A stretch of 64,000 bases of DNA from the NCBI GenBank assembly GCA_032718865.1, contig JALUTQ010000007.1, positions 434,001 to 498,000 of the forward strand, written 5' to 3'. Below are positions 13,504-40,677 of this stretch, piece by piece. Position numbers and translations under genes: made by a program. Position 1 is the stretch's first letter, and each line of letters starts with the position of its first letter. The DNA is from Tilletia caries. Taxonomy: Eukaryota > Basidiomycota > Exobasidiomycetes > Tilletiales > Tilletiaceae. The notes under the pieces were generated by a model, which worked only from the letters and a program-made list of their open reading frames with translations, ran no database searches and was not told where the DNA came from.

Positions 13504-13818
13504 ATGCGTGCTTCTCAAGCCCTCGTCGTGCTGATTGCCTGCACCCTTGTCGCAGGACAGCCCATCAAGCAAGACCACCTCAAGCAAGTGAGTACCTTGA
13601 CCGTATCCTGAACGACACGAACCCACTCCTGAGCCATTTCTCCATCTCAACAGCCCGCCGAGACCGTCCGCGACCTGAAGGAGATCGAGAGTGCCGATGC
13701 TGCTGCTGTTGCTGCACACTTCAACGGACCTAGTGAGAACTTTCAGATGAAGCCTGGCAGCAAGCCCGTCAAAGGTTTTGGCTTTTCGCACGACGGCCGG
13801 GGTAAACCATGGCAGTGA
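13504..13818 (+). CDS. Gene A: small secreted peptide precursor, single C-terminal motif
   Basis: Two exons, 13504-13587 and 13654-13818, with a GTGAGT...CAACAG intron, give 82 residues. An N-terminal signal peptide is evident (MRASQALVVLIACTLVAGQP, about 20 residues). A short acidic spacer follows (ETVRDLKEIESAD), then the C-terminal end GFGFSHDGRGKPWQ. That end is one unit of the motif shared with genes B to E. The signal peptide, intron position and first half match gene D almost exactly, so A looks like a short paralogue of D lacking the repeat exon. The function is unknown; secretion is inferred from the signal peptide. Confidence 0.75.
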
Positions 13819-15579
13819 GCATCGCTTCTCGTCAAAGGTTGACGGTCCTCCATCCCAACGTATCCTTCCTTCTCTCCGACCAAACTTCGGACGTCCGCTA
13901 AGTCTTCGACTCCAAGCTGCGGTGCCTCGTATGTCACCCAACCCTACTGGCTCGCGTTGTGCGTGTACGACGACCGCCCGTCAACTTTCTCGCGTCCGCA
14001 ACCCCACCACTTCGACCATCGCACCTCCATCCTTCTACGTCTGCCATTCACCCTCACACCTCACACATCAATGCCCGACTCTGAAGGCGGTCGCCGCTCG
14101 CGTTACGTTCCAGCTCATCTGATGTACGATACAACTCTGCCTGTCACCACCTCTGACCGTCTTCGTCCGCTTGTCACCCGTTTCTATCGCCCCCTTTTCT
14201 TTGAATTTCACTGATGTTGTCACGTCCTCACGTCCTTCTCTTTGTTCGTCTGATGATTTCACGGACCTCGTTCCAGACTTTTGACATGCGAAAACAGGGT
14301 CAAGCAATATTCACATGGGCGTTCACTATTCATTGAGAGAGAAAAAGCGCCTGGATACCCGTTATCCGTACTTCAGCACCTCAGCATGCGAGCATGAGTA
14401 ACGCAAAGATGTCCGATCGGAGACGACATGCGTTCTCACGTACAACTCTCCGCCGAACATGTTGCACGCACGGAAAGCCGACGCCAAGGCTTTGCGAGGC
14501 CGCGATATGCGGGACGGACACATCTGGCTCCCATGCTGGACAGTTATGTTCGGAGCTCTTCATCCGTAATTCTGCTCGCTGAAAAAAAGCTTCGCCCGAC
14601 GCCCCGAGACGAGAATGAAAGAGGAGCGACCCTTGGTTGCTGTATTGAGGACATCCACAAACTTGGATATCGTCTTTCTCCTTCAAGGTCATTCCCAGAA
14701 GTCGGACTTCGATGACCTGCAGAAATCTAGTATCGTTACATCGCGGAGAGGGCGGCAAAAAGTCAGACATCACTCGCAAAGTAGGCATCGTCCAATGTGG
14801 ACTCATCGCCCAGTCCCAACCCTTTCATGTCCGAAGAGCACGGACTAGAGGCACTTTGCGCTGAGGATATCTCATTTCTACAGGTTGCGCGAACGTTTCC
14901 GACTTCATATCGTGATGGGTGCGTTGCTGGACGAGCTCGGGGTTAACAATCAGCTCACTTTGCGTCCGAAGTCCTTACTCCTTGGCGACTTTTCCATCTA
15001 CATACGTATCATAGGACCATGCCATCTCGGAGATGCGGGCACCTTGGAAAGGCAGGCTTTCTCAGCAAGGACAGAATGGTGGCGGTCATCTCTCTCGTTC
15101 GCAGGAATGCCGCAATTTTCATTCGTTCTCAAGGTTCTCAGAACTCAGAACTCTCGTAAGAACTTCCACGGTTCCATGCTAAGGCTCCTCATGTCGAAGA
15201 GATTATTCCGCCCCATTCAACTCCGTCTTCCACGCGGAGACTTGTCAGAGAACAGATGTCAGAGACGATTCTATCCCTAGAAACTCAGGAGCGGTGGAAC
15301 ACTTTCTCCGATCGCCCTTTCGCCGTGTCCGAGGACAAAGACGAGACGGCCGCCCTCTGCACCCTGTATTTGCCTATATATACGGCGCCTCCGCTGACAC
15401 CTTTCCTCCCTCTTCTTATCCTCACTCACCCAGCCACCCAGCCACCCAGACATCCACTCATCCAGTCTTCCACCCACTCCATTCAACCAACATCTCTTAT
15501 TCTTCTTCCTCATCCATCCGTGAGAAGAACTCATATCGCTTCATATCCCCTCACTTCTACTTCCAAACAGCTGCACATC
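13819..15579. other. Conserved intergenic block between genes A and B
   Basis: It aligns by eye with the D-to-C interval on both inverted-repeat arms (37548-39560 and 26337-24325). The first 500 bases are a 3' flank shared by genes A, B and D (landmark GTGCGTGTACGACGAC at 13957). No convincing ORF is present; conserved patches such as CGCGATATGCGGGACGGAC have no assigned role. Confidence 0.5.
15375..15382 (+). promoter_or_regulatory. TATA box of gene B
   Basis: TATATATA lies 205 bp before the gene B start. The same box with the same flanks (CCTATATATACGGCGCC) precedes both copies of gene C. Confidence 0.6.
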
Positions 15580-16419
15580 ATGATGCGAGTCCTTCACCCC
15601 TTCGTCTTGCTGATCTTCCCCATCCTCGTCGCTGCTCTGCCCTTGCACGACAGCGGCGTTGTTCAGGTGAGCTAACGAAGTACTGGTCGCACCCTTTCCA
15701 CGTTACGTCTCGCTCATTGCAACGTTTCTTCCATAGGATCCGACTGCCCCGAGCAAATTGGCAGCCCGCTTCAGCTTCGATCCGTCGTTCTCCCGGTCGA
15801 TGCCTTCGGCGGCCGACCATTTCAAAGAACATAACCCAGCCGGTGAGCACTGGCTTGCTTCCTCTGGAGAGTAGACATTTCATGTATCTGATCTGATGTG
15901 ATCATTTCCTCCTTTTCAGCGCCACCGCAACACCCTCACGCGCTCTCAGGATCCCTCGAGACTTCGGTCCTGGAGAAGCGCAAGAAAGTCATCAATCCCC
16001 CCACGGCGGGCTTCGGCTGGTTGCCCGGTGGACGCGGACCTTCCTGGCCCAGGGCTAACCGCGGCGAACAGACTGAGCCCACGACAGAGGCTGCCAAAAC
16101 ACTCGGTGTCTCTGGTGCTCCTGACGTTGTCGTAAACGAATTAAGCGCCACCGCCGACCTCGTCAAAAAGAGCGCCAATTTCTTTGGCGAGAGTTTGTTC
16201 GGGATGAGCAAAAACGGCGATGGAGGGCAGTGGGGTCGGCCCGCTCGCGCCACCAAGGACGAGAAACGGTACGCAGTATCGAAGGTTTCTCAAGCCGACT
16301 CTACTGAGGTCAAGAGGGCCAATGCGGTGGTTCTACGCCCCGGAGATGCGTATCATCCCGGCCACAACGTCAAGGCATTTGGCTTTGGGCCCGGTGGCGA
16401 AGGTCCTGGGTGGCACTGA
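15580..16419 (+). CDS. Gene B: secreted repeat-peptide precursor, C-type 5' half and D-type 3' half
   Basis: Three exons (15580-15666, 15737-15842, 15920-16419) join in phase to 230 residues. The signal peptide is MMRVLHPFVLLIFPILVAAL. Three motif units follow: GFGWLPGGRGPSWPRA, LFGMSKNGDGGQW, and the C-terminal AFGFGPGGEGPGWH. Dibasic sites (EKRKK, VKK, DEKR, VKR) lie between and before the units, as expected for Kex2-type processing; the last site would release a C-terminal peptide of about 33 residues. Exons 1-2 and the start of exon 3 match gene C. From the ELSATADLVKK region to the stop, and through the 3' flank, it matches gene D, so B looks like a recombinant of the two. The function is unknown. 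Confidence 0.78.
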
Positions 16420-17178
16420 GCATTGCTTCTTGCCAAGATGGACGATGGTCTCCTGGAACGTCCTCCATCCGAACTTGTAGTTCACGTTGTGCGTGTACGA
16501 CGACCGCCCGTCAACTTTCTCGCGTCCGCAACCTCCCCACTTCGACCATCGCACCTCTATCCTTTTTACGTCTGCCTTTCACCCTCTCGCACCCCCCAGA
16601 TCAATGCTTGACTCTGACGGTGGTCGCCGCTCGTGTTACGTTCCCGCTCATTTGATGTACGAGACAGCTCTGCCTGTCACCACCTCTGAACGTCTTCCGC
16701 CCGCTTATCGCACTTCTCTATCACCCCCCTTTTCTTTGAATTTCACTGATGTTGTCACATTCTTATTTCTCACGCCCTGCTCTTTGTCCGTCTGATGATC
16801 TCACGGACCTCGTTCCGCGCTCATGACATGCGAGAAAAGGGTCAAGCAATATTCACATGGGTGTCCACTGAGTGAGAAGAAGGGCCTGACCATACATAAT
16901 CGTCATCCATATCAATATGACAATCATGCTCTTATGCATACAAATGTCTCTCCACCAAGCATGCACAGCAGCGATCCTCCTTCGGACAGGATGGTCGGGT
17001 CCATATTCACTATCGGGCCAAGTCGTTGACGCTCTACATCGCCGTCTCTCCTACATGGGGCTTGTTAATTTCCCCCTTTGACCTTTGCTCCTCTTTTTCC
17101 TCCCATTCCCTCATCTTCCTCTTCCTCCTCTTCCTCCTCTTCCCTCTTTTTCCTTCCTTAGTAGCTGCAGACATCAGG
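16420..17178. other. 3' flank of gene B
   Basis: Positions 16480-16860 repeat the 3' flank seen after genes A and D (GTGCGTGTACGACGAC). From about 17050 a pyrimidine-rich tract (CTTCCTC repeats) leads into TAGTAGCTGCAGACATC, which is also found at 42210-42235 on the opposite strand. No gene is seen. Confidence 0.5.
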
Positions 17179-17183
17179 GAGGG
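17179..17183 (+). repeat. Left target-site duplication GAGGG of the copia element
   Basis: GAGGG directly before the 5' LTR matches GAGGG at 21758-21762 after the 3' LTR. The uninterrupted site is present on the minus strand at 42205-42209. Confidence 0.9.
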
Positions 17184-17283
17184 TGTGAAGTGGAGGTCCG
17201 GGCCGGACTGCCGTGGGTGCTGCGTGTCCCTTCTTCCATGTAAAACTTCCTGCTGTCAATGAGAACCACCATCAGTTTCCACA
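17184..17283 (+). repeat. 5' LTR of copia element
   Basis: It starts TG and ends CA, is 100 bp long, and matches the 3' LTR at 21658-21757 base for base in my reading. Confidence 0.92.
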
Positions 17284-17296
17284 GGTTATGAGTCCA
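17284..17296 (+). promoter_or_regulatory. Primer-binding site
   Basis: GGTTATGAGTCCA starts immediately after the LTR. Its complement, TGGACTCATAACC, looks like the anticodon arm of initiator tRNA-Met (CAU anticodon in CTCATAA). This fits priming from an internal tRNA-iMet fragment as in Drosophila copia and Ty5; it is inferred from general knowledge of that arm. Confidence 0.6.
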
Positions 17297-17322
17297 CTGC
17301 TTAACCCTTAGCTACTCACAAG

Positions 17323-20300
17323 ATGTCAAGTTCCTCGGAAAAGTTGCGCGAAGGCATCGCGCCCCTGCTCGGGCCCAACTACCGACTGTGGTCGGAGCGC
17401 GTCAAGACGGTCCTGCGATCCAACGGCTACTGGTCCGCCGTTGCGCCCGGGACACCACCCGGTGAGGGGGCAGCGGCGCAGGAGCTTAAGGATTGGACGA
17501 CGGCCAACGCCAAGGCATACGGCTGCATCTTCCTTACCACCAGCGACGAGATCCAGACGGACCTGGCCCGACTCGGTACGGAGGACGCGAAGGTTCTCTG
17601 GGACTACCTCCGCGACGAGTATCGGAGCACGTCGGTGGAGGCAAGGCTCCAGCTCAAGAGCGAGCTGCTCGACGCGCTGACGGCCCCGAAGGAATCGATG
17701 CGCGACCACATTGGACAGCTTGCCGGGCTCTACGAGCAGCTGCTCCAAATCGGCAAGCCGGTCGACGAGGAGGAGCGGTGCATCGAGCTCCTCTGGAGCC
17801 TGCCCTCCGCGTACCGAGGCTTCAAGTGGAGCGCGAGCGCAACGACGTCGTGGACGGAGCTTCGGTCGAAGATCCTGGAAGCGGAACGGTCCCTCAAGCG
17901 TGAGGATGAGAAGGACGCCAAGACCCGACAGGACGCTGCCTTCGCGGTCTACCACGCGCCCAGCCCTGCAAAGAGCAGCGGCAAAGGAGGCTCTCCGGCG
18001 AGCAGGCACGGAAGCACTTCGAAGGACGGAGGGTCCTTCGGCGGAGCATGTTGGCTCTGCAAGCAGAAGGGGCATCGGTTCTACGACTGCCCCCACATCG
18101 ACTCGGCGCAAGACTTCATCAACACGAAGGTTGATGGCAAGAAGCACCAAGACACCGCGGCCATGGCGCGAGAAGCCAAGCCGCAGGCTACGGACAACCC
18201 CGCCGATGTTGACTTTGCCTGCGTGGTTGGTGCCAGCACGATGGCTGGGCACTTCATCCTCGACACCGGCAGCTCTCGGCACATCGTCGCCAACGCATCC
18301 GGCCTCACGGACTACCGAGCAGCCAAGCCCGACACCGGCATTGAGTGCGCCAACGGAGGGCTCATGCCGGTCACAGGATACGGCAATCTCGTGGTCACGA
18401 CGCAAGCCGGCCTCAAGATCGAGCTCAAGGACGTCGCACACTGTCCCTCCGCCATTGGCAACCTGATCGGCGGCAAGCGCCTTACGAAGAGCGGGTGCTC
18501 GATCTCGTTCGACAACACGTCTGCAACGGTCACTGAAGGCGGTACCGGGCGAATCATCATGAGGGCATCGGTCATTGGCGAGAACTGGGTCGTCCCGCTG
18601 GAGTCAGCGACGACGGACTCGGTGATGGTAGCGTCGGAGCCAAGCGCCGATCCGGAAACGATGCACTGGCATCGGTGCGCCGGCCACGTCGGCGAGTCCA
18701 CCCTTCAAGTCCTAGCAGCAACGGGCACCGTCGCGGGCATGCCGAAGAAGCTCGGTCCGCTCGGATTTTGTTCAGACTGCGCCGAAGGCAAGATCGCGAG
18801 GAGCAAGCACCCGCGCATAGCAATTGGTGAGCGGGAGCACCGGCCACTCAGCAAGATCCATGTTGACCCTTTTGGCCCCGTCAATCTGAAGGATGGGCAG
18901 GCACTGGGCGGCGCGAAGTACGGGCTCATCATCACTGATGAGGCGAGCCACCACGTCTGGGTCAGCACGATGCAGTACAAGTCAGAGGCTGCAGGGATCC
19001 TCAAGGCTTTCCATGCCCAGGCGCTGACTCGCTACCCGGAGAAGCCAATCAGCCGGATCCGTACGGACAATGCGTCGGAGCTCAACTCGGCAGAGCTGTT
19101 GGAGTATTGGGCTACGCACGGGGTCAAGGTGGAACCGTCACCACGCTACGCGCCCCAGAGCAACGGGGTAGCCGAGAGGGCGGTGCGGACAATCACCGAG
19201 ATGTGTAGAACGATGTTGATTGCAGCAAATCTACCCGCGTCATTTTGGCCTGCAGCTGTGCGAACGGCAGCGTACGTGAAGAACAGAGTGCCGGCGACGG
19301 GATTGAGGAAGGGGGAGACGCCTTATGAGGCATTGCATGGGCGACCACCCAAGCCGGAGCGTCTCAGAATGTTCGGATGCATTGCATGGGCCAGGATTCC
19401 AGAAGCACAGAGGACGGGCAAGTTCAGCACGAAGGCTATGCCCTGCATATACCTGGGTCCAGCCTTCACCAACGCTTCCCGGTTGTGGGATCCCATCTCG
19501 AAGAAGGAGATGATCGAGCACTCGGTGGTGTTCGACGAAGAAGGAAAGGCGGGCACGCTGCTCGAGAAGGAGCAGAGCCGTCAATACGAGCAGCAAGTTG
19601 CGCAGCTCAGAGCCCTCAACCTCACCGGTGACGACGTCCAAGCGGGACGCGTCGAGAAGGAGCCAGTTCGGGTGGGAGGTCAGTTGGAGGTCGGAGAAGA
19701 CGTCCGAGCAGCGATGCAGGCTGTCTTGGACGAGGACGCTGCGCCAGAGGGAGTTCGTGATGCGATGGAACGAGCAGCTCGCGGACAATCGATTGCCTAT
19801 GACGAGATGGGCCGGATCGCGAGGCTGCTGGCCGACCTTCATCGCGAACTCGCGGCGCCAGAGGGAGAAGACAGAGGCGGCGAGAGTGGTCAGGCGACCG
19901 CACAGGAGGCCACCGCTGGACGAAGGAGCGCTCGGATCGCGGGACAGCCAGCGTTGGAGCTGTCTCTGCCGCCCTCCAGCCGAAAGCGGAAGGAACCGGA
20001 CGGTGCCTACACGGTGGGAACGTGCTTCGTCGTCATGGAGCCCAGCGAAGTCCCCTACGATGATCCTTGGTCCGTCGCGGAGGCAACACGGCGAACGGAC
20101 AGCAGGCTCTGGCTTGAGGCGATGCAGAAGGAACTCAAGTCGCACGATAGTCGGGGAACGTGGGAGATCGTCACGGCACCCCTAGGAGCGAACCTGGTCA
20201 GCGCCAAATGGGTCTTTCGGGTCAAGAGGAACGGAGATGCGACGATTCAGAGGTACAAGGCACGGCTAGTGGCGCGAGGATTCACGCAAGTTCAAGGCGT

Positions 20301-21606
20301 CGATTTCGAGGAGACCTTCGCCCCAACCTCACGCCTACAGATCCTTCGCTTGTTCTGCGCGCTCGTCGCTGTTCTGGACATGGATTTGCACCAGATCGAC
20401 TTTGAGACGGCCTACCTGAACGCGACTCTGACGCACGACATCTACATGCTGCCGCCGGAAGGAGTCGAGCTCATGCCGCACCAGGTACTGAAGCTGCGAC
20501 GGGCTCTGTATGGCCTGAAGCAGTCGGCTCACGACTGGTACGCGGTGCTCCGAGATTCCTTAACAACGATCGGCTTCGAGCAGTGCGCTCTCGATCCGAC
20601 CATTTACGTTCGGAACGGCGACAACCCGGCGATGCTGCTCGTCTACGTCGACGACATCTTGGTCGCAGCGCCGAAGGGAAGCGGTGTCGAGAAGGCGAAG
20701 GCCGAGCTCCTTGGACTGTTCAAGGGGACAGACTTGGGGCCGGCGCATTAATGCCTTGGGATTCGAATCGAACGAGACCGCAAGCAGAAGACGATCTCTT
20801 TGGACCAAGAGCGGTACGCCGAGGAGGTCCTCGCCCGGTTCGGCATGTCCGACTGCAAGCCGGCCAAAACGCCTATGATGGCAAAGCAGACGCTGAGGAA
20901 GGCGGTCGATGGCGAGGCACGAGCGGACAAGGCTCAGTATCAGGCTCTCGTCGGATCGATGGCATACTTTGCTCAAGGAACCCGTGCCGACCTCGCCTAC
21001 TACGTCAGTGTTCTCGGCAAGTTCTGCGCCGACCCTTCAGAAGCGCACTGGATCGCGGCGAAGCACGGCTTACGCTACCTATGTGGGACGTCTGGGACGA
21101 GGCTGGTGTTTGGGGGAGCGGAGGATCTGCAAGTGCGAGGATTTGTGGATGCGAACTGGGCTGCGGACAAAGACGATAGGAGGTCAATGTCAGGCTACGT
21201 GTTTACGGTTGGCGGAGGCGCGGTGGCTTGGGGCTCGAGGAAGCAGGGCGCTGTGGCTCTGTCTACGGCAGAGGCCGAGTACATTGCGGCGGGTGTTGCT
21301 GGGCGGGAGGCGATCATGCTCAAGGGAGCATTGACTGCATGTGGTCAGCTCGTTGGGACGATTACGGTGCACTGCGACAACCAGGCGGCAATCCAGTTGG
21401 TCAAGAACCCTGGATCACACCACGATCGCAGCAAGCACATCGACATCGTGCACCATTGGATTCGGGATCAGACTCAGCTGGGAGCTTTCGCGTTCGAATA
21501 CATCCCGACAGACCTTAACCCGGCCGACGCTTTCACCAAATCACTCGGCACCATCAAGCACAACCAGCACGCGGAGCGCATCGGTTTGGAATTGCGCAGG
21601 GAGTGA
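17323..21606 (+). pseudogene. Copia gag-pol, interrupted by one in-frame stop
   Basis: The frame runs from 17323 to a TAA at 20749-20751, then continues in the same frame to 21606. Visible parts in order: a Gag with a CX2CX4HX4C knuckle (CWLCKQKGHRFYDC, near residue 243); protease LDTGSS; the HHCC zinc-binding region before integrase; integrase Asp/Asp/Glu region (HVDPFGPV, RTDNASEL, PQSNGVAERAVR); reverse transcriptase (ARGFTQVQGVDFEETFAP; YVDD at about 20647); and RNase H (DANWAADK, STAEAEYIA). The stop falls between reverse transcriptase and RNase H, just after DLG. It could be a single CAA-to-TAA or TAC/TAT-to-TAA change, or a sequence error. It is not a homopolymer slip. Confidence 0.9.
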
Positions 21607-21646
21607 AGGACTGGAGGATAGGAACAGGCGGGATCAGGAGACTACG

Positions 21647-21657
21647 CAGAGAGGGAG
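21647..21657 (+). promoter_or_regulatory. Polypurine tract of copia element
   Basis: An almost pure purine run (CAGAGAGGGAG) lies directly before the 3' LTR, the usual site of plus-strand priming. Confidence 0.65.
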
Positions 21658-21757
21658 TGTGAAGTGGAGGTCCGGGCCGGACTGCCGTGGGTGCTGCGTG
21701 TCCCTTCTTCCATGTAAAACTTCCTGCTGTCAATGAGAACCACCATCAGTTTCCACA
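21658..21757 (+). repeat. 3' LTR of copia element
   Basis: 100 bp, identical to the 5' LTR, followed by GAGGG. Confidence 0.92.
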
Positions 21758-22218
21758 GAGGGCGCCCTCCGAGCTCAGCACAACGCGCGCCGAGAAGGCA
21801 CGAGGAACCGAAAGAGAGAGGATGGGGTTTGGGAGGGCTGAGAGAAGACTGCTGTCGAGTACGTTCCTTGCTGACCCGAGCAGATGGACTGGTAGGCTTG
21901 GCCATGTACACAGCTGACCCGGAGGGGCTACCACTCTGCCTACATTTCCTTTCCCTCAAACCTTTCCCACATATCCTCATCTGGTCCCCTCCCTTCTCCC
22001 CACCGCACACAACCGTGACAAAACTGACCCTTATCGGGTTCTCAATCTCCTCGTTGCTTCCCTTTCCGCAGGAGAGTTCCACCCAGCAGCCCCCCGCGGC
22101 AGACGTCCGACCGGCGACGGAGACTCCAGTCAGCCAGGCGCAGTCGAATAACAACAAGGCACCGAATTTGGGCGAGCATATCTTGGGTGTGTTTAGAGCT
22201 GGATATGGCTTGAAGTGA
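21758..22218 (+). pseudogene. Gene G (left copy): small conserved protein, disrupted by copia
   Basis: The last exon (22072-22218) encodes about 48 residues with SNNNKAPNLGE, conserved in the right-arm copy that ends at 41727. Upstream, APSELST is also shared. In this copy the copia element is inserted directly before that exon, and the splice donor read as AAG|GTACGA on the right arm is AAG|GCACGA here. Both changes suggest the copy no longer makes the normal product. The family is not recognised. Confidence 0.5.
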
Positions 22219-23274
22219 ACGGGAGTGTATGAGCGACTGGGTTGGGAGGAGCCTGGACCGGGACGAACATGCCACACCGTTAGGACTCAATCTTGCAAGT
22301 GATGTGATCTACGCTTCAGCAAGAATGCGAATACCAACATAAACGTACCCCGTGCTTTGGTCCGCGCCCTTCTCCTCTCCTATCTACGCCTCTGAATCGT
22401 CCCGGCTCAAGTCATTCATCATTCTCGTATCATCCTCGCCGCCTCGCCTCGGTCCTCGATTTCTTGATTCACATAACGCGCTCGAGCGCGCGGAACCGCA
22501 TGTTTACGGGCTCTGAAAACATCCCGCACTCGGCTTGGCTTCTATCGATCTCGATCTCGTCTCGCCTTCAATTATCTTCGCTTCTGAGACGACCGTTCAT
22601 GTGCTCCGCGCTGTGGTTCTTCCGTATTCTTCTTCTCTTATTCCTTGCCTGCCTGCCCCTGCTGCTTGTTCTGGCTTTGCGTTCTGTTCTCTTTTTCTCG
22701 TACCAAGTTTCCTGAATCCATATATGTGTGCAACGATCCTTCGTCACTTGCTTCTCCTTTACCTGCTGCTGTCGCGTTGCGACTCGGCGTGAGGAGACAC
22801 TGAGGGGACCTGACCTGACCGCTTGCCGTGGGGAGTGGAGCGGCTCGAAAAGGGATGGCTTCGCAGGAGAATGCGGTGATTCGAAGTGCGATGTGATGAA
22901 GTGAAGAGCGTGAGAAACGTCGAAGTGTATGTAAGCAAACAAGTGAATATCATATCATCAACATCAATTTCAGTGTGAGATGTGAGAGACAGTACAAAGT
23001 GGTGAGAATGGAAGCGAGTATGTAGCTGCAGGCGCGCTTCGGAATGAAGACGGGCCTGGGAGCTCGTCAGCTCGCGGAAGCGAAGCAAGGCTTGGTCAAG
23101 GAGGATGGCTTGTGTCGGGTGAATTTGGGAAGTGAAGAAACGTTCTGGAATCGGGTTCGATGTCGCTCGAAACAAAGTGGGGAGAACGATACGAGAGAAG
23201 AGATCAAGTATCGCTGCCTGAAGGGGACAGCAAAGGCTGGAAGCAGACAGTAGATCTCTTGGAGGCAGTAGCGT
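22219..23274. other. Intergenic, genes G to C (left arm)
   Basis: It is conserved with 40678-41726 on the right arm. Several open frames exist on both strands but none carries a recognisable feature; I treat it as intergenic. Confidence 0.4.
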
Positions 23275-24324
23275 TCACTGCGTCTCCTTTGCCGCGTTCT
23301 CGACCATGTGCGTCACCGCCCGAGGCCACTGGGCTCCCGATCCGTCAGGCCCCCAAGGGAACGCGGAGACGGCCTTGGACGACTTCGGGTCGAACCCTTG
23401 GCCGGGCTCATCGACAGAGCCTATCAGGCCCTCGATGCTTCGTGTCGTGGGGATCGAAGTGAGCGACGACGACGCTGCCCCGACAGCGGCAGGCACCACG
23501 GCCTCCGAAGCAGTGGTTTCCGCTACTTTGCCCGAGTAGCAGATGCTGCCCGAGTGCGGGCTATTGCGCTTCTCGATGTCTCCAGCAGCGGCCGAGGAGC
23601 TGAAGATGGAGGAGAGGAGGGATCGTGGCCACGAAGGGCCTTGAAAGTTTGGGCCCCATCCGAAGCCTTGCACGGGTTTGACGGGGATGGGGTGCGCGCA
23701 TGGCAGCGAAACGGGCTTCAAGCCGACGTTGCCCGCTGCAGCGCTTCGCTCCATCAGCTCAGCACTGCTGGCAGCAGTAGCAGCAGCAGCAGATGTAGCG
23801 AGTGTCTTGGCCGCCTCTGTCGTAGGCTCGGTCATTTCGTCGCGGTTGGCCCTGGGCCAGGTAGGTCCCTGAAACCCGGGCAACCAGCCGAAGCTCGCCG
23901 TGGGGGGATTGATGATTTTGTTGCGCTTCTCCAGGACCGAAGTCTCGAGGGATCCTGAGAGCGCGTGAGGGTGTTGCGGTGGCGCTGAAAAGGAGGAAGT
24001 GATCAGATCAGATCAGATGTATGAAATGTCTACTCTCCATAGGAAGCAAGCCAGTGCTCACCGGCTGGGTTATGTTCTTTGGAATGGTCAGCCGCCGAGG
24101 GCACCGACCGGGAGAACGACGGATCGAAGCTAAAGCGGGCTGCCAATTTGCTCGGGGCAGCCGTATCCTATGGAAGAAACGTTGCAATGAGCGAGACGTA
24201 ACGTGGAAAGGGTGCGACCAGTACTGCTTTGGCTCACCTGAACAACACCGCTGTCGTGCAAGGGCAGAGCAGCGACGAGGATGGGGAAGATCAGCAAGAC
24301 GAAGGGGTGAAGGACTCGCATCAT
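23275..24324 (-). CDS. Gene C (left copy): secreted repeat-peptide precursor
   Basis: Three exons (24324-24238, 24167-24062, 23984-23275) give about 300 residues. The signal peptide is MMRVLHPFVLLIFPILVAAL. Motif units are SFGWLPGFQGPTWPRA, GFGWGPNFQGPSWPRS and AFPWGPDGSGAQWPRA. Dibasic sites LEKR and IEKR lie ahead of the first unit and between the second and third. A short alanine run (four Ala) sits in the spacer after unit 1. Compared with the right-arm copy, exons 1 and 2 differ little, while exon 3 has many amino-acid differences around unit 1 and the alanine run. The function is unknown. Confidence 0.78.
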
Positions 24325-24509
24325 GATGTGCAGCTGTTTGGAAGTAGAATTGAGGGGGTATGAAGTGATATGAGTTGTTCTCACGGATGGATGAGGAAGA
24401 AGAATAAGAGATGTTGGGTGAATGGGGTGGATGGAAGTGTGGGCGGCTGGATAGCTGGCTGGGTAGGTGAGGATAAGAAGAGGGCGGAAAGGTGTCAGCG
24501 GAGGCGCCG

Positions 24510-24517
24510 TATATATA
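24510..24517 (-). promoter_or_regulatory. TATA box of gene C (left)
   Basis: TATATATA lies about 190 bp before the start, mirrored at 39368-39375. Confidence 0.6.
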
Positions 24518-24832
24518 GGCAAATACAGGGTGCAGAGGGCGGCCGACTCGTCTCGGTCCTCGGACACGGCGGAAGGGCGATCGGATAAAGTGTTCCACCC
24601 GCTCCTGAGTTTCTAGGGATAGAATCGTCGCTGACATCTGTCCTCTGACATCTCCCCGGCGCCGAAGACGGAGTTGAATGAGGCGGAAGAATCTTGGTCG
24701 AAATGAGGGCCTTGGCATGGAACCGTGGAAGCGTGGAAGGTCTTTCGAGAGTTCTGAGTTCTTAGATCTAAGATCTGAGAACCTTGAGAACGAGTAGGAA
24801 TTGCGGCATTCCTGCGAACGAGAATGCAGCCA

Positions 24833-24935
24833 CGCTGCTAGCATGCCGAGCTTGGCTCCGCCCTTCTTTCTGCTACCTGCACTCTGCAGTCTGCACGCAC
24901 TGCAGCTCTGCACGCCTGCAGGCTGCAGTGCGTAG
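24833..24935. repeat. CTGCAG-rich palindromic patch
   Basis: A run of CTGCA/TGCAG words forms several small inverted repeats (for example CACTGCAG near 24898 against CTGCAGTG near 24922). It is mirrored on the right arm near 38950-39055. The role is unknown. Confidence 0.5.
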
Positions 24936-26336
24936 TTGAAATTAGGGAAAGATCTGTGCCTGTGTGGACTGATGAATGATGAGATATGATGCGTTTATGT
25001 AAGACCATCACGGACGAACGGGAAATCTCTACTGCCCTGACGGAGAGAGATGGCCGTCTTCATTTCGTCCTTGCTGAGAAAGCCTGCATCTCCGAGGTGA
25101 TGTGGTTCTGTGCACTGTATGATGCGTATATGTAGATTGGAAAGTCGTCAAGGACCTCGGAAGCAAAGTGAGCAGATTGTCAACACCGAGGTCGTCCAAG
25201 CAACGCACCCATAACCGAGAGATGTGAACGCGGAAACGTTCGCGCAACCTGTAGAAATGAGTTGTCCTCAGCGCAAACCGCAAAGTGCCTCTAGTCCGTG
25301 CTATTCGAACGTGAAAGGGATGGAGTTGGACGACGAGTCCAGATTGGACGATACCTATTTTGCGAGTGATGTCTGACTTTTTGCCGCCCTCCCCGCGATG
25401 TAGCGATACTTGAATGTCTGTAGACAGGCCATTGAATTCCGACTTTTGGGAATGATCGTGACGCGTGACGGAGATATCCAAGTCTGAATGTTCTCAATAC
25501 AGCAAACAAGGGTGTTCCTCTATCATCCTCGTCTCGGGGTCTCGGGTGAAGCTTTTTGCAGCGAGAAAACTGATGCCTGACGGATGAAGAGCTCCGAACA
25601 CAACTGTCCAGCATGGGAGCCAGATGTGTCCGTCCCGCATATCGCGGCCTCGCAAAGCCTTTGCGCCGGCTTTCCGTACGTGCTTGGCGGAAACAGATAC
25701 GTGCGAACGCATGTCGTGTCCGATCGGACACCTTTGCGTTGCTCATCCTCGCATGCTGAGGCGCTAAGGTGTGGTCAACGATTAAAGGAGGTCCAGCGCT
25801 TCTCATCATCCAGTGAAAGTCCATGCGAATTGCTTATCCTTTTTACAGTATTGCACGTCACGAGTCCGGAACAAGGTCTGTGAAATCATCAGACGAACAA
25901 GAGCAGGGCGTGAGAAGAGAATTGAATTTCAAACGAGAGTGGCGATAGAGAGTGGCGATAAGCGGGCGGAAGACGTTCAGAGATGATGCCAGACAGACTT
26001 GTCTCGTACATCGAACGAGCCGGAACGCAACGCGAGCGGTGACCGCCGTCAGAGTCGAGAATTGATCTGTGAGGCGTGAGGTGCGAGAGGGTGAAAGGCG
26101 GACGTAGAAAGATGGAGGTGCGATGATCGAAGTCGCGGGGTTGCGGACGCAAGAAAGTTGACCGGTGGTCGTCGTACACGCACAACGTGAACTAGAAAGG
26201 TTGGATGAAATACGAAGCACCGCAGCTTGGAGTCGAAGACACAGCGGACACCCGAGGTTTGGTCGGCCGGAGCGAAGAACAAGTGCGGATAGAGGACGTT
26301 CCAGGAGGTCATCGTCCATCTTGACAAGAAGCAATG

Positions 26337-27676: not shown

Positions 27677-28279
27677 GATGAGATAGTAGGTGGCTGCGCA
27701 AGGATAGCCGTCAGCCGATGCGCACGCACATATTCTGGCAAAAGCCGAAGCCGGATGTAGACAATCGCACCGCGGTCTGCGGGACATACATACGTGGACG
27801 GACATTGTTTGGCCGCGATGTTCGACGCCTCCGCCTCTCGCGCAAGGCTTGACAGTATTGAGTCGCGTGGGCTAGGTCGAGTGAGCAAAACGCGGCTAGG
27901 GTGAATCCTTGACTCTTGTGCCTGTTTCTGGATCGAGTCGGCGGGCGTATGTAGAGGGCGCTATGCGGGATGCGTTCGAGGCCCCTGAAAAAACCTCATA
28001 CCGCACTTCTCCACCGCCGCCCAACTCATCCGGGTAGAGCATCGGCCCATGGTCATGTGCTCGCAAAGTACCATCACTGATCACAGTCGCTGATGACTTG
28101 AGGGAAATTATGTAGCTGTGAGATGTGAGAGACCAGTGGCGGTGATTGGTGATGAGCGGCGTAATAGATTGAGACGTTGTGGAAAGCAGAAAAAGAACGT
28201 TCCCACCGCGGTTCCTTGCAACTCAACGCGAGGACAAGAGAGATCTTTCTCTCTGCTACAATAATGAGAGGTGCTTTGC

Positions 28280-30043: not shown

Positions 30044-30391
30044 TTATCGTTGACGTAGACCCGCCTTCGCCTTGACAAAGTCAGTGCGGGACTGCCGAGA
30101 GCCGCCCTGCGATTTCTTGTTCGCTCGACTGTCGTGAGCTTTGAACCATGTCGCTCCGCTACCGTCGTGCCCAATCCCGAAGTGCTTTACCCTCCAAGGA
30201 CGTAGCGACGCTGACGCCTGAGCTTCTGGAACCAGATCGGAGGTTTCAACGGCCTGCACAGGTGAGGAGATGAGGTCAGGGCTGGATCCATGGCATGGAA
30301 ATCGTCAAAATGGGGCACTCACTTTGTTGAAGGGTAGTCCCGCGACTAGAGCGGCACCAGTGAGCAGCAGGATGATGTCAAATACACGCAT
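30044..30391 (-). CDS. Gene E: small secreted peptide precursor
   Basis: Two exons (30391-30323 and 30253-30044) give 92 residues. The signal peptide is MRVFDIILLLTGAALVAGLP. Exon 2 holds one motif unit, HFGIGHDGSGATWFKA, with a KK site after it. The intron position just after the signal peptide is the same as in genes A to D, supporting common origin despite little other similarity. It lies between the inverted-repeat arms and has no second copy in this window. A further motif in another frame follows at 29940-29990, so the annotated C-terminus may be incomplete. Confidence 0.65.
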
Positions 30392-33563: not shown

Positions 33564-33565
33564 TA

Positions 33566-35614
33566 CTCGGGCCCAACGGTGGTTGAACGTTGTTCCCATT
33601 TTTCGCTGACACAAAAAAGCCCTCCCTCCAGGGAGGGCCTGCAAGCTCAATGAAGAATACATGCTCAATGAAGAAATCAAAGATAAGATCCATTCCATAA
33701 CATCATTCCTCCGACGCTGCCATGTCTGCATCCACAATTTGACTACTCTGTACACCCCACTGCCTATCCGCGATCCTCCTACGCTTCATCGCCTCCCTTC
33801 GCACCTCCGTAAACAGTTTTCGCCAACCTTTTTGACTTCCTGTTCTCGGCATCCTGTTTGAACAGCACCCACTCTCGTCGCACCTCCTCCCTCTTTTTCC
33901 TTCTCGATTTTTCTCCTTCGCAATCTCTCGCGCTTCGTGTGCATACAGCACACCTCCAGATTGTACAACCTTTCTCTGTCGTTCGTTCCGCTTGTGTCGT
34001 TCTTGCTGCGCCGAGGTTTGAGCTTCAAGTGCGGTTACCGCAAGTTGACCTGTGCGCGCTTGTTGCAGAGATCCTCGGATGAACCTGGACACGGAAGGGG
34101 AGAGTTCAAGACCATATCGATCCTCGATTTGTTGAGCAGATCTGGACAGCGTGCGAATAGTTCGCGGGGTCGAAGGAACACCTGGTGAGCCCGGCGGTGT
34201 GGAAAAAGAAATTGGAGGCGGCATGGATGATTGTGAAGTAGGATTGGGATACTTGGAGAGAACTTGCGTAGGGTCATAGGGGTGTATTCCTGTGCGGCGA
34301 AATCCTGTCTTGATCGTGTTTGCCTTCATCGTGTGCATGCGGATGCCGTTTAAAGCGGCCAAAAATTCGGTTTTGCTGAAATTCGTACATCCAGTCCTCG
34401 TTGCAGCATCGATTGCCTCGCGATGCCAATGCTTGTAGGGCTGGAAGACTGCAACGTCCAGAGGCTGCAAGATATGTGAGGAGTGTGGCGGCAAGCTGAA
34501 GGGGATTATTTCTTGCTGGTCGCAAAAGTCGATGAACTGTTTTTGTACAGTGTGAGCCGTGTCCGTCGAATATGAGCAGACGTTTGGATCCTTTGGTCAT
34601 TCGTCTCGTGCGATTGTTGAAGTGAACGATCCAACGCAAAGCCAAGATGTCGTCCGAATAGCCTTTGTCTGATACCGCAAGAAGAGTGTCTCCGGGCGCA
34701 GAATTGTTCGTCCATGATTCGGAATGCTGAATACCGGACATGATGACCATTGGAGAAATTGCTGATCCAGTCGCGTTGACTGCCTCGACGCAGGTAACCG
34801 TTTCGCGATTCGTTTCGCTCGCCAAGTGCGCTTCTCGCGAGGGGCAGAGCGTCACTATCCATTGTGTTCCCCCCAATTCCAACACGAAAGCCGACCTCAT
34901 CCATGTTCCAAATATCGTCCGGCAAGATTCCGTGCTGCTGGATGACCTTGCGAAGCCTTTCGTAGAACCTGAGCAATGTCGCATGATCCTGGGTCATTCG
35001 AGACAGTTTCCTGGACTTCTGTCTGACCTTGCTGAGCTCGGGGTTCCTCTTGATGAAATTCTCTACCCAGTGCGCGCCGACTGTGAGCGGCACCGTGTTT
35101 GGATCGGTGTGCGCGTCGCGCAGAATTTGATCTGCAGATGCCTGGATCAGTCGAGGACGAGCCGATATCTCCAGACCGTCGAGGATACCGATCCACGCCA
35201 AGAGCACCTTCTCCTCTGTGTCGTTCAGCTTCCGGTTGGTGGGCGCGCGCGTGCTCTTGCTTGCCTTGCCGTTGTAGCGACGAGTGAGGCGCTGCACATC
35301 GACGTTATGTTTTTCTCGCAATGGCGGAGAGATTGATCTTGCCTTCCGACTTTTTGCGCTTCTTCTACCGCGCAGAGAACGCGCTCTTCTTCTTCCTGGT
35401 ACGCTGAAGGCATTGGTGAGTTTTAAGTACCTGTTTGATGCTGTGTAGGGAATATGGATGCTGTGCGGTCTTGCCAATGTTATGGAATGGATCTCATCTT
35501 TGATTTCTTCATTGAGCATGTATTCTTCATTGAGCTTGCAGGCCCTCCCTGGAGGGAGGGCTTTTTTGTGTCAGCGAAAAATGGGAACAACGTTCAACCA
35601 CCGTTGGGCCCGAG
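33566..35614 (-). mobile_element. Pogo/Tigger-like DNA transposon with 138-bp TIRs
   Basis: The terminal inverted repeats 33566-33703 and 35477-35614 start CTCGGGCCCAACGG and differ by only about one base. A TA dinucleotide flanks each side (33564-33565, 35615-35616), as in Tc1/mariner/pogo insertions. Each TIR contains a small hairpin, AGCCCTCCC...GGGAGGGCC. The minus strand carries a DDE transposase broken by two frameshifts. Confidence 0.92.
33703..35519 (-). pseudogene. Pogo/CENP-B-type DDE transposase, two frameshifts
   Basis: Three overlapping frames (35519-34506, 34984-34274, 34494-33703) together resemble one transposase. The N-terminus has a helix-turn-helix / Tc5-type DNA-binding region (VGAHWVENFIKRNPEL). 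The DDE core shows IWNMDEVGFRVGIGG (first Asp), LLIFDGHGSHCT (second Asp) and PPHSSHILQPLDVAVF. One shift lies in a G run just after GIGG (near 34875). The other lies in an A run just after GSHCTK (near 34545). Both sit in homopolymers, so they could be real decay or sequencing slips. The C-terminus is rich in basic residues. Confidence 0.85.
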
Positions 35615-36389
35615 TAGCAGAGAGAAAGATCCTTGTCTTCGCGTTGAGTTGCAAGAAACCGCGCAGGAACGTTTTCTTCTCTCTTTCCACGTTTCCACGA
35701 CGTCTCAAATCTCAATCTACATATTACGCCGCTCATCACCAATCACCGCCACTGGTCTCTCACATCTCACAGCTACATAATTTCCCTCAAGTCATCAGCG
35801 ACTGTGATCAGTGATGGTACTTTGCGAGCACATGACCATGGGCCGATGCTCTACCCGGATGAGTTGGGCGGCGGTGGAGAAGTGCGGTATGAGGTTTTTT
35901 CAGGGGCCTCGAACGCATCCCGCATAGCGCCCTCTACATACGCCCGCCGACTCGATCCAGAAACAGGCACAAGAGTCAAGGATTCACCCTAGCCGCGTTT
36001 TTGCTCACTCGACCTAGCCCACGCGACTCAATACTGTCAAGCCTTGCGCGAGAGGCGGAGGCGTCGAACATCGCGGCCAAACAATGTCCGTCCACGTATG
36101 TATGTCCCGCAGACCGCGGTGCGATTGTCTACATCCGGCTTCGGCTTTTGCCAGAATATGTGCGTGCGCATCGGCTGACGGCTATCCTTGCGCAGCCACC
36201 TACTATCTCATCAATGGAGAATGGAGAATGGAGAATGGAGCTTCATTGATATGACAGAAATGACTTGGCGAAGTTCCTGACTCAGTACTCAGTACTCAGT
36301 CCCGTTCTCATTTTCATTTACATTGCGCCGCTGATTCTCTGCGTTTCTTTTTACGCAGAACTTCTGCTCTGCGGACCTGCGGTCGAGGC

Positions 36390-36397
36390 TATAAAAA
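36390..36397 (+). promoter_or_regulatory. TATA box of gene D (right)
   Basis: TATAAAAA lies 191 bp before the start, followed by GGGCAGCTTGCGT as before gene A. Confidence 0.6.
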
Positions 36398-36580
36398 GGG
36401 CAGCTTGCGTCAGCCAGATCCACTTTACTGACCTCTCCCTTATCCACTTCCACTTCCTTTTCCTTCTCCTTCAACCTCTTTCTCACCTCCCCTCTCAGTC
36501 TCACTTCCCCACTTCCTCACTCTCTCGCTCCCTCTGTCATCCCCTACCGCAGATTTCTAAACCAGCCAAAACCAAAAACC

Positions 36581-37425
36581 ATGCGTGCTCCTCAAGCCCT
36601 CGTCGTGCTGATTGCCTGCACCCTTGTCGCAGGACAGCCCATCAAGCAAGACCACCTCAAGCAAGTGAGTACCTTGACCGTATCCTGAACGACACGAACC
36701 CACTCCTGAGCCATTTCTCCATCTCAACAGCCCGCCGAGACCGTCCGCGACCTGAAGGAGATCGAGAGTGCCGATGCTGCTACTGTTGCTGCACGCTTCG
36801 TCTTCGATCATTTCGGGAACTCACCTGGCGAAGATACGGCTCAGGAAAAGCGGCCGCCTCTCTACCTGACTGCCCGAAAGAAACAAGGTGAGCATAACTG
36901 CTGTCTCTTTTGAGCTACGTCCCTCATGCCCATCAGCTGACGGGTGATGCAATGTCCTTTCTTCCAGCCCTTGACGTTGTCGCAAACGACTTGAGCGCCA
37001 CCGCCGACCTCGTCAAGAAGAGCACCAAGTTCAGTTTCAGTGACAAGGATTTCTTCGGGATGAGCAGCAATGGCGCTGGAGTGTCGTGGGGTCGGTCCGT
37101 TCCAGCCACCAAGGACGAGAAACGGCACGCAAATGTAGGAAACGGAAGCCCGGCTTCTTCTGGCAGCGAGGGAGCCTCCAAATTTGGCTTCGGGCCCAAC
37201 GGCGATGGAGTGCAGTGGGGTTGGTCCCCTCGAGCCATCAAGGACGACAAACGGCACGCAAATGTAGGCAACGGCAGCCCGGCTCCTTCTGGAAATGCGG
37301 GAGCCTCCGAATTTGGCTTCGGGCCCAACGGCGATGGAGTGCAGTGGGGTTCGTCCCCTCGCTCGAGCCACCAAACACGAGAAACGGTACGCAACGTCGA
37401 AGGTCTCTCAAGCCGACTCCATTAA
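36581..37425 (+). CDS. Gene D (right copy): secreted precursor with Kex2-bounded repeats
   Basis: Three exons (36581-36664, 36731-36887, 36968-37425) join in phase to about 232 residues. The signal peptide is MRAPQALVVLIACTLVAGQP. Exon 2 ends with an EKR and a RKK site. Exon 3 carries FFGMSSNGAGVSWGRS, then two near-identical units: DEKR|HANVGNGSPASSG...KFGFGPNGDGVQWGWS and DDKR|HANVGNGSPAPSG...EFGFGPNGDGVQWGSS. Each unit is about 38-42 residues from one KR site to the next, as expected if Kex2 releases them as separate peptides. A 4-bp and a 22-bp tandem duplication near the end shift the frame, giving the short tail GLSSRLH and excluding a final motif. The function is unknown. Confidence 0.8.
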
Positions 37426-37547
37426 GATCTCAAGCCGAGTCCACTAAGGTCAGGAGGAAGAAGCCCGGAGAAGCGCATCGTCCCGGAAGCAAGCCCGTTG
37501 AAACTTTTGGCTTTGGGCCCAGCGGCGAAGGTCCTGGGTGGCATTGA
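37426..37547 (+). pseudogene. Out-of-frame C-terminal motif of gene D (right)
   Basis: The tail FGFGPSGEGPGWH (ending at 37547) is in another frame from gene D. Two insertions relative to gene B explain this: CTCG duplicated at 37358-37365, and a 22-bp imperfect duplication (37406-37427 and 37428-37449). Together they add 26 bp, which is exactly the frame difference. Both arms share them. Confidence 0.75.
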
Positions 37548-39560
37548 GCATTGCTTCTTGTCAAGATGGACGATGACCTCCTGGAACGTCCTCTATCCGC
37601 ACTTGTTCTTCGCTCCGGCCGACCAAACCTCGGGTGTCCGCTGTGTCTTCGACTCCAAGCTGCGGTGCTTCGTATTTCATCCAACCTTTCTAGTTCACGT
37701 TGTGCGTGTACGACGACCACCGGTCAACTTTCTTGCGTCCGCAACCCCGCGACTTCGATCATCGCACCTCCATCTTTCTACGTCCGCCTTTCACCCTCTC
37801 GCACCTCACGCCTCACAGATCAATTCTCGACTCTGACGGCGGTCACCGCTCGCGTTGCGTTCCGGCTCGTTCGATGTACGAGACAAGTCTGTCTGGCATC
37901 ATCTCTGAACGTCTTCCGCCCGCTTATCGCCACTCTCTATCGCCACTCTCGTTTGAAATTCAATTCTCTTCTCACGCCCTGCTCTTGTTCGTCTGATGAT
38001 TTCACAGACCTTGTTCCGGACTCGTGACGTGCAATACTGTAAAAAGGATAAGCAATTCGCATGGACTTTCACTGGATGATGAGAAGCGCTGGACCTCCTT
38101 TAATCGTTGACCACACCTTAGCGCCTCAGCATGCGAGGATGAGCAACGCAAAGGTGTCCGATCGGACACGACATGCGTTCGCACGTATCTGTTTCCGCCA
38201 AGCACGTACGGAAAGCCGGCGCAAAGGCTTTGCGAGGCCGCGATATGCGGGACGGACACATCTGGCTCCCATGCTGGACAGTTGTGTTCGGAGCTCTTCA
38301 TCCGTCAGGCATCAGTTTTCTCGCTGCAAAAAGCTTCACCCGAGACCCCGAGACGAGGATGATAGAGGAACACCCTTGTTTGCTGTATTGAGAACATTCA
38401 GACTTGGATATCTCCGTCACGCGTCACGATCATTCCCAAAAGTCGGAATTCAATGGCCTGTCTACAGACATTCAAGTATCGCTACATCGCGGGGAGGGCG
38501 GCAAAAAGTCAGACATCACTCGCAAAATAGGTATCGTCCAATCTGGACTCGTCGTCCAACTCCATCCCTTTCACGTTCGAATAGCACGGACTAGAGGCAC
38601 TTTGCGGTTTGCGCTGAGGACAACTCATTTCTACAGGTTGCGCGAACGTTTCCGCGTTCACATCTCTCGGTTATGGGTGCGTTGCTTGGACGACCTCGGT
38701 GTTGACAATCTGCTCACTTTGCTTCCGAGGTCCTTGACGACTTTCCAATCTACATATACGCATCATACAGTGCACAGAACCACATCACCTCGGAGATGCA
38801 GGCTTTCTCAGCAAGGACGAAATGAAGACGGCCATCTCTCTCCGTCAGGGCAGTAGAGATTTCCCGTTCGTCCGTGATGGTCTTACATAAACGCATCATA
38901 TCTCATCATTCATCAGTCCACACAGGCACAGATCTTTCCCTAATTTCAACTACGCACTGCAGCCTGCAGGCGTGCAGAGCTGCAGTGCGTGCAGACTGCA
39001 GAGTGCAGGTAGCAGAAAGAAGGGCGGAGCCAAGCTCGGCATGCTAGCAGCGTGGCTGCATTCTCGTTCGCAGGAATGCCGCAATTCCTACTCGTTCTCA
39101 AGGTTCTCAGATCTTAGATCTAAGAACTCAGAACTCTCGAAAGACCTTCCACGCTTCCACGGTTCCATGCCAAGGCCCTCATTTCGACCAAGATTCTTCC
39201 GCCTCATTCAACTCCGTCTTCGGCGCCGGGGAGATGTCAGAGGACAGATGTCAGCGACGATTCTATCCCTAGAAACTCAGGAGCGGGTGGAACACTTTAT
39301 CCGATCGCCCTTCCGCCGTGTCCGAGGACCGAGACGAGTCGGCCGCCCTCTGCACCCTGTATTTGCCTATATATACGGCGCCTCCGCTGACACCTTTCCG
39401 CCCTCTTCTTATCCTCACCTACCCAGCCAGCTATCCAGCCGCCCACACTTCCATCCACCCCATTCACCCAACATCTCTTATTCTTCTTCCTCATCCATCC
39501 GTGAGAACAACTCATATCACTTCATACCCCCTCAATTCTACTTCCAAACAGCTGCACATC
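37548..39560. other. Conserved intergenic block between genes D and C (right arm)
   Basis: It mirrors 24325-26337 and aligns with 13819-15579. It contains the shared 3' flank of genes A, B and D and the TATA box of gene C at 39368-39375. No gene is recognised. Confidence 0.5.
39368..39375 (+). promoter_or_regulatory. TATA box of gene C (right)
   Basis: TATATATA lies 193 bp before the start codon. Confidence 0.6.
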
Positions 39561-40101
39561 ATGATGCGAGTCCTTCACCCCTTCGTCTTGCTGATCTTCC
39601 CCATCCTCGTCGCTGCTCTGCCCTTGCACGACAGCGGTGTTGTTCAGGTGAGCCAAAGCAGTACTGGTCGCACCCTTTCCACGTTACGTCTCGCTCATTG
39701 CAACGTTTCTTCCATAGGATACGGCTGCCCCGAGCAAATTGGCAGCCCGCTTTAGCTTCGATCCGTCGTTCTTCCGGTCGGTGCCCTCGGCGGCTGACCA
39801 TTCCAAAGAACATAACCCAGCCGGTGAGCACTGGCTTGCTTCCTATGGAGAGTAGACGTTTCATATATCTGATCTGATCTGATGTGATGTGATCACTTCC
39901 TCCTTTTCAGCGCCACCGCAACACCCTCACGCGCTCTCAGGATCCCTCGAGACTTCGGTCCTGAAGAAGCGCAAGAGAATTGTCAATCCTGCCACGTCGA
40001 GCTTCGCCTGGTTTCCCGACGGACAGGGACCTTCCTGGCCCAGGGCCAACCGCGACGAACAGACTGAGCCTACGACAAAGGCTGGCAAGACACTCGCTAC
40101 C

Positions 40102-40164
<63 letters not shown>

Positions 40165-40677
40165 GCTGCTGCTGCTACTGCTGCCAGCAGTGCTGAGCTG
40201 ATGGAGCGAAGCGCTGAAAAGGGCAAGGTCGGCTTGAAGCCCGTTTCGCTGCCATGCGCGCACCTCATCCCCATCAAACCCGTGCAAGGCTTCGGATGGG
40301 GCCCAAACTTCCAAGGCCCTTCGTGGCCACGATCCCTCCTCTCCTCCGTCTTCAGCTCCTCGGCCGCTGCTGGAGACATCGAGAAGCGCAATAGCCCGCA
40401 CTCGGGCAGCATCTGCTACTCGGGCAAAGAGGAACCTACTGCTTCGGAAGCCGTGGTGCCTGCCGCTGTCGGGGCAGCGTCGTCGTCGCTCACTTCGATC
40501 CCCACGACACGAAGCATCGAGGGCCTGATAGGCTCTGTCGATGAGCCCGGCCAAGGGTTCGACCCGAAGTCGTCCAAGGCCGTCTCCGCGTTCCCTTGGG
40601 GGCCTGACGGATCGGGAGCCCAGTGGCCTCGGGCGGTGACGCACATGGTCGAGAACGCGGCAAAGGAGACGCAGTGA
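39561..40677 (+). CDS. Gene C (right copy): secreted repeat-peptide precursor with polyalanine
   Basis: Three exons (39561-39647, 39718-39823, 39911-40677) give about 319 residues. The signal peptide is MMRVLHPFVLLIFPILVAAL. Motif units are SFAWFPDGQGPSWPRA, GFGWGPNFQGPSWPRS and AFPWGPDGSGAQWPRA, with dibasic sites KKRKR and IEKR. The spacer after unit 1 has 16 Ala, a Thr and 7 more Ala encoded by GCT repeats, 20 codons longer than in the left copy. Unit 1 differs from the left copy at several residues while units 2 and 3 are the same. Secretion is inferred; the function is unknown. Confidence 0.8.
40105..40185 (+). repeat. GCT trinucleotide repeat (polyalanine)
   Basis: Sixteen GCT codons, one ACT, seven GCT, one ACT, then GCT GCC, in frame in gene C. 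The left arm has only four Ala codons at this place. Confidence 0.92.

What the first reader, a model, noticed from the sequence alone, without database searches (positions are those of the whole stretch)
13504..40677. A local family of secreted precursors built from an F-G-x-x-x-x-G-x-G-x-x-W peptide motif
Genes A, B, C (two copies), D (two copies) and E all have a signal peptide of about 20 residues, an intron right after it, and one to three copies of a short motif: GFGFSHDGRGKPW, GFGWLPGGRGPSW, AFGFGPGGEGPGW, KFGFGPNGDGVQW, GFGWGPNFQGPSW, HFGIGHDGSGATW. Dibasic sites (EKR, DEKR, DDKR, VKR, VKK) separate the units. This is the layout of Kex2-processed repeat precursors such as mating-factor or Rep1-type proteins, yet I do not recognise the motif from any described family. 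The family is clustered, diverse and tied to transposons, as expected for fast-evolving secreted peptides.
Basis: partly seen in the sequence, partly recalled or inferred. Interest (0 to 1): 0.88.

Follow-up and report, generated by a model that had tools for sequence, protein, structure and literature searches.

The report
Tryptophan-capped secreted peptide precursors in bunt fungus
A wheat bunt fungus (Tilletia) carries a clustered, changing family of small secreted-looking proteins that resemble precursors cut into short tryptophan-capped peptides; no description of them was met, and their target is unknown.

Summary
The observation largely holds. The window (Tilletia caries/controversa/laevis complex) encodes seven related genes (A, B, D-, C-, E, C+, D+), each with a signal-like start, an early intron and one to three in-frame copies of F-[GAP]-x6-G-x2-W (the left copy of C is frame-broken). 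19 of 20 motif matches in the window lie in the family; shuffles average 0.8. The genome holds at least five further genes (A', B', E2, F, G). The named protein hits are all Tilletia. Eight of 11 intact models match public proteins, two of them from the second Met. Copies either end the protein (W or W-x then stop, 5 of 22) or are followed by a basic residue (15 of 17 at W+2, 2 at W+5), as if a stop codon and a cut site were interchangeable. Correction: dibasic sites are not universal (none in A or A'; one in E, after its motif). Best reading: kexin-type precursors of secreted, roughly 14-residue W-capped peptides, multiplied by duplication and probably gene conversion around a palindrome. Processing, expression and function are unproved. 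It works like the known KEP class; single-unit members fail KEP's repeat criterion.

The parts
13504..13818 (+). Gene A, 2 exons (13504-13587, 13654-13818), 82 aa, one motif at the C-terminus (13777-13812), ends W-Q-stop
   Evidence: identical to public protein P0007, TATA-like box at -172
15580..16419 (+). Gene B, 3 exons (15580-15666, 15737-15842, 15920-16419), 230 aa, three motifs, KR at residues 84, 180, 196
   Evidence: identical from the second Met to P0003
23275..24324 (-). Gene D-, 3 exons (24324-24238, 24167-24062, 23984-23275), 300 aa, three motifs
   Evidence: the 183-residue P0005 is contained in it
26338..27305 (-). Gene C- (left-arm copy of C); reading frame broken in exon 2; four motif copies still legible downstream
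30044..30391 (-). Gene E, 2 exons (30391-30323, 30253-30044), 92 aa, one motif (30146-30181), followed by F-K-A
   Evidence: differs from its relative E2 (P0008) at 9 of 92 residues
36581..37425 (+). Gene C+, 3 exons (36581-36664, 36731-36887, 36968-37425), 232 aa, three motifs 43 residues apart with KR between them; a fourth copy (37506-37541) lies beyond the stop in another frame
   Evidence: identical to P0002
39561..40677 (+). Gene D+, 3 exons (39561-39647, 39718-39823, 39911-40677), 319 aa, three motifs and a poly-Ala stretch
22603..28166 (.). Left arm of the inverted repeat, carrying D- and C-
35722..41347 (.). Right arm of the inverted repeat, carrying C+ and D+; differences from the left arm concentrated at 39700-40450, in gene D
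17176..21758 (+). copia-type element (109-nt direct repeats, 97% alike; coding frame interrupted at least once)
33564..35616 (-). Tc5/pogo-like DNA transposon with 140-nt terminal inverted repeats, in the loop between the arms

Best explanation
A Tilletia family of secretory precursors for short linear peptides of the form xFGx6GxxW(x), about 13-14 residues. The precursor enters the ER and loses its signal peptide. Kexin (at dibasic sites in B, B', C and F; at single K or R elsewhere) then cuts before and after the motif. A Kex1-type carboxypeptidase would trim the basic residue, leaving the same W-x end that the last unit of A, B, B' and G already has because the protein stops there. The genes multiply by segmental and inverted duplication and their units are probably mixed by gene conversion, giving a set of related peptides. 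Shown: gene models, introns, signal-like N-termini, motif, basic-or-stop pattern, duplications. Inferred: secretion, cutting, and an extracellular role, most likely as a signal or effector-like peptide.
For: Of 22 motif units in 11 intact models, 5 end the protein at W or W-x; of the other 17, 15 have K/R at W+2 and 2 at W+5, against 8-16% K+R in the proteins. Many units are paralogues, not independent. Of the 11 gene-last units, 8 have K/R at -2 (7) or -4 (1) before F. G and F were reached by similarity to other members, not by motif, yet both end in the motif. E and E2 differ at 9 codons with changed residues and 10 silent codons outside the motif, none in its 13 codons. A and A' outside signal and motif: dN 0.196, dS 0.104, from 19 and 3 changes. 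At least one kexin-type P-domain gene. A TATA-like box at -170 to -208 in 12 of 12 genes checked (no control run, promoters are duplicated). Eight of 11 models match public proteins. Precedents in PMC9769878 (passages): W-ending peptides from the C-terminus of a Coprinopsis KEP in culture supernatant, and products that appear cut after single Arg on expression in Pichia.
Against: A and A' have no dibasic site, D units are not all flanked by dibasic sites, and G has an RK pair inside its motif. The last motif is not fixed: A and A' differ at 1 of 13 residues, as do the last units of B and B'. B against B' shows no clearly lower replacement rate in motifs than elsewhere (motif dN 0.090, dS 0.095; other dN 0.109, dS 0.203). 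In C+ the product between KR sites would be about 41 residues, not 14. The stop-or-basic pattern may partly be common descent of the units. The 22 units were collected with a pattern that fixes F, G and W, so their constancy is no test. A unit-like stretch of F has lost the G after F, and a D-like fragment has lost the W. No transcript or peptide data were seen.
Confidence: 0.6

Rival explanations
1. Rep1-like structural peptides: kexin cuts the precursors into pieces of 30-50 residues that coat the hyphal surface.
For: C+ has motifs 43 residues apart with KR between them; Rep1 peptides are mostly 35-53 residues (PMC4617103 passage); Rep1 is marked as present in these Tilletia species (PMC9172201 passage).
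Against: Six of the 11 intact models (A, A', E, E2, F, G) carry a single motif in 82-182 residues; Rep1 has 12 repeats in 652 aa. Rep1 lacks the STE13 signature (PMC6339444 section 15), whereas several KR sites in B, B', C+ and F are followed by YA or HA.
Confidence: 0.15
2. Alpha-pheromone-like self-signal: the peptides are sensed by a fungal GPCR, not by the plant.
For: W-capped, Gly-rich core; A (GRGKPW) and B unit 1 (GGRGPSW) resemble the Trichosporon oleaginosus peptide QSWGGCGGRGTPCW (PMC6339444 section 8); XA after some KR sites in C+, F, B and B'.
Against: No cysteine in the motif units; many diverse paralogues; STE3 matches on contig C27, not linked. The STE2 search rang nowhere, controls included, so it says nothing.
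Confidence: 0.12
3. Unprocessed small secreted effectors in which the motif is a binding or folding element.
For: Found only in Tilletia at this sensitivity, clustered, with transposons.
Against: The motif sits at the very end in 5 of 11 intact models and occurs more than once in 5 (B and B' are in both groups); no convincing Pfam match.
Confidence: 0.13

Closest known systems
KEX2-processed repeat proteins (KEPs) of fungi (PMC6339444: passages and two sections; PMC7329392: passages)
   Same: Signal-like start; repeated units with KR or KK between them in B, B' and C+
   Different: Single-unit members, no dibasic site in A and A', clustered paralogues
Coprinopsis cinerea KEP 447393 peptides GPPAPSW and DDDPEGPPAPSW (PMC9769878, passages)
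   Same: Peptides from the precursor's C-terminus ending in W, found in culture supernatant
   Different: Different sequence; no F-G-x6-G-x2-W motif
Trichosporon oleaginosus alpha-pheromone-like peptide QSWGGCGGRGTPCW (PMC6339444 section 8)
   Same: Basidiomycete; GGRG, P and final W
   Different: Two cysteines, W instead of F near the start
Ustilago maydis Rep1 (PMC4617103, passage)
   Same: Smut fungus, secreted, Kex2 sites, piece size as in C+
   Different: 12 repeats in 652 aa; sequences not compared

Membership tests
KEP | Signal peptide | tested here: inconclusive
   Hydrophobic N-terminus in 11 of 11 intact models, but no signal-peptide predictor was run
KEP | Several repeats (apparently at least three in PMC6339444, passage) with KR/RR/KK between them | tested here: inconclusive
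   Met by B and C+ (three units) and B' (four); D has three units without dibasic sites between all; not met by A, A', E, E2, F, G
KEP | Kexin encoded in the genome | tested here: met
   One P_proprotein match, C13:385801-386061, E 2.6e-26; its protease domain was not checked
Rep1 | Sequence homology to U. maydis Rep1 | not testable with these tools
   652 aa is outside the length range of the protein searches made; the Rep1 sequence was not at hand
Rep1 | About 12 repeats of 34-55 aa | tested here: not met
   1-4 motif units per intact model
Ascomycete alpha-pheromone | STE13 dipeptides (XA/XP) after KR | tested here: inconclusive
   HA or YA after some KR sites in C+, F, B and B' only
Ascomycete alpha-pheromone | Cognate STE2 receptor | tested here: inconclusive
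   No match, but no control rang either
Dikaritin/ustiloxin RiPP | UstYa (DUF3328) genes nearby | tested here: inconclusive
   No UstYa match in the genome, but no control rang
Basidiomycete a-type pheromone | C-terminal CAAX | tested here: not met
   None of the 11 C-termini has Cys at position -4

The most novel reading that the evidence does not exclude
A diversified set of alpha-pheromone-like, tryptophan-capped peptide signals in a basidiomycete, a phylum held to use only a-type pheromones for mating (PMC6339444), with variants mixed by gene conversion around a palindrome.
Probability: 0.1. Interest if true: 0.85.

Novelty: new variant of a known kind. Interest (0 to 1): 0.5.

Why it matters
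If the peptides are made, wheat bunt fungi have a lineage-specific peptide set from about a dozen precursor genes. Because internal and C-terminal copies predict the same mature end, the products can be looked for by mass. It also suggests that KEP surveys demanding several repeats may miss single-unit relatives.

Tried and rejected
Mating-locus reading: the STE3 matches are on another contig, so linkage is not supported. UstYa and STE2 searches rang nowhere, controls included: no conclusion. Profile of 14 motif units against PDB sequences: 5 matches, best E 1.4, chance level. Weak own-genome hits of G on C9 and C40 (E 0.09 and 0.9): the C9 stretch holds no motif; the C40 stretch was not opened. 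Pfam: 1 of 8 members matched one family at E 0.32, ignored.

Limits: protein searches scored only the roughly 8000 candidates sharing most words, so absence from other Tilletia species such as T. indica or T. horrida, or from other fungi, is not shown. Neither KEP survey names Tilletia in its main text (supplements not read). The paper search for Tilletia with Kex2 gave 2 papers, on killer toxins and on a KP4 transgene (listing only); the searches listed no paper whose title or abstract start described this family. Papers outside that library were not searched.
Full report
Where it is. The window is positions 434001-498000 of contig C7 in a genome of 38,104,258 bases and 40 contigs. Public proteins identical to the window's A and C+ (and to B from its second Met) are named from Tilletia controversa; those identical to A', F and G are named from T. 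laevis. The source is thus a wheat bunt fungus of the T. caries/controversa/laevis complex. The size is close to the 38.18 Mb of T. caries TC1_MSG (PMC10684912, abstract start in the listing), but the isolate is not proven.

What is there. Seven family genes lie between 13504 and 40677: A, B, D-, C-, E, C+ and D+. Each starts with a signal-like hydrophobic stretch and has its first intron after residue 23-29. A TATA-like box lies 170-208 nt upstream of the ATG in 12 of 12 genes checked, five of them outside the window (no control was run and the promoters are partly duplicates). The motif F-[GAP]-x6-G-x2-W is far above chance: 20 matches in six frames against a mean of 0.78 in 60 shuffles, and 13 strict matches against 0.02. 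19 of the 20 lie in the seven genes.

Beyond the window. The same genome has A' and B' on C34, and E2, F and G at C7:255-262 kb. A D-like fragment at C7:252.7-253.1 kb has lost the motif's W. G is the most divergent intact member: it was reached by a weak signal-peptide hit and then found to end in GFAFRKDGGGAAWS. Three database searches gave 9 distinct proteins. Eight are named as Tilletia; the ninth, P0005, has no source name and is contained in gene D-.

Evidence for a processed peptide. The 11 intact models hold 22 units. They were collected with a pattern that fixes F, G and W, so the constancy of these three is not a result. C-, the out-of-frame fourth copies of C and the D-like fragment were left out, and a unit-like stretch in F that lacks the G after F is not counted. 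What the pattern does not fix is the context: five units end the protein at W or W-x (A, B, B', F, G). The other 17 continue, 15 with a basic residue at W+2 (WPRA, WPRS, WGRP, WGRS, WFKA, WSRA) and 2 with one at W+5. A stop codon in one gene thus stands where another has Arg or Lys, as expected if the basic residue is a cut site. The caution is that units are related by descent, so the pattern may be partly inherited. Upstream, 8 of the 11 gene-last units have K or R at -2 or -4.

Selection. E and E2 differ by 9 replacement and 10 silent codons outside the motif and by none of its 13 codons. A and A' outside signal and motif have dN 0.196 and dS 0.104, from 19 and 3 changes; their motifs differ at one residue. 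B and B' show no excess (other: dN 0.109, dS 0.203; motif: dN 0.090, dS 0.095). The first unit of the B/D type varies visibly: GFGWLPGGRGPSW, SFGWLPGFQGPTW, SFAWFPDGQGPSW. The evidence for constraint on the motif is therefore mixed.

Palindrome. D and C sit in two inverted arms of about 5.6 kb. Between right-arm positions 35760 and 39700 the arms differ in 6 alignment columns, while 39700-40499, inside gene D, holds 111, 61 of them in the 100 bases of the Ala-repeat length change. Over the first 230 bases of exon 3, 35 sites differ between D- and D+: D- agrees with both B and B' at 12, D+ with both at 7, D- with B' but not B at 6, D- with B at 2, D+ with B at 2, neither at 6. This mosaic suggests ectopic gene conversion, an inference. 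The divergence in D argues against a simple assembly artefact.

A and A' have no dibasic pair, E and E2 have one, after the motif, and D's are not between all units. C- is frame-broken and a fourth motif in both C copies is out of frame.

How it probably works. Secretion, kexin cutting at dibasic and probably single basic sites, then carboxypeptidase trimming to W-x. Products that appear cut after single Arg (on expression in Pichia) and W-ending C-terminal peptides in Coprinopsis supernatant are reported in PMC9769878 (passages). The genome has at least one kexin-type P domain. Target and function are unknown; an extracellular signal or effector-like role is my inference.

Comparison. The nearest class is the KEPs. 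The B unit end GGRGPSW and the A end GRGKPW recall the Trichosporon oleaginosus peptide QSWGGCGGRGTPCW, discussed as alpha-pheromone-like (PMC6339444 section 8); that is a resemblance, not a test. Rep1 could not be compared by sequence. PMC9172201 marks Rep1 as present in these species (passage); whether that gene belongs to this family is open.

Noticed in passing
window 22603-28166 and 35722-41347: Large inverted repeat, nearly identical except in gene D and at its outer and inner ends, with gene E and a Tc5/pogo-like transposon in the loop.
   Followed up: partly
window 17176-21758: copia-type element with short (109 nt) direct repeats at its ends, between B and D-.
   Followed up: partly
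L009 (C34:1476000-1485999): Segmental copy of the end of the MINDY gene, A', B' and following sequence; larger blocks are 84-92% alike to the window; the MINDY part looks truncated by eye.
   Followed up: partly
window 10067-12151: MINDY-type deubiquitinase gene next to the cluster.
   Followed up: no
window 3723-4790: Histidine-specific methyltransferase domain, possibly an ergothioneine synthesis gene (recalled).
   Followed up: no
window 28440-29100: Stretch similar by eye to DNA upstream of F (L032 about 7600-8300), perhaps a decayed gene.
   Followed up: no
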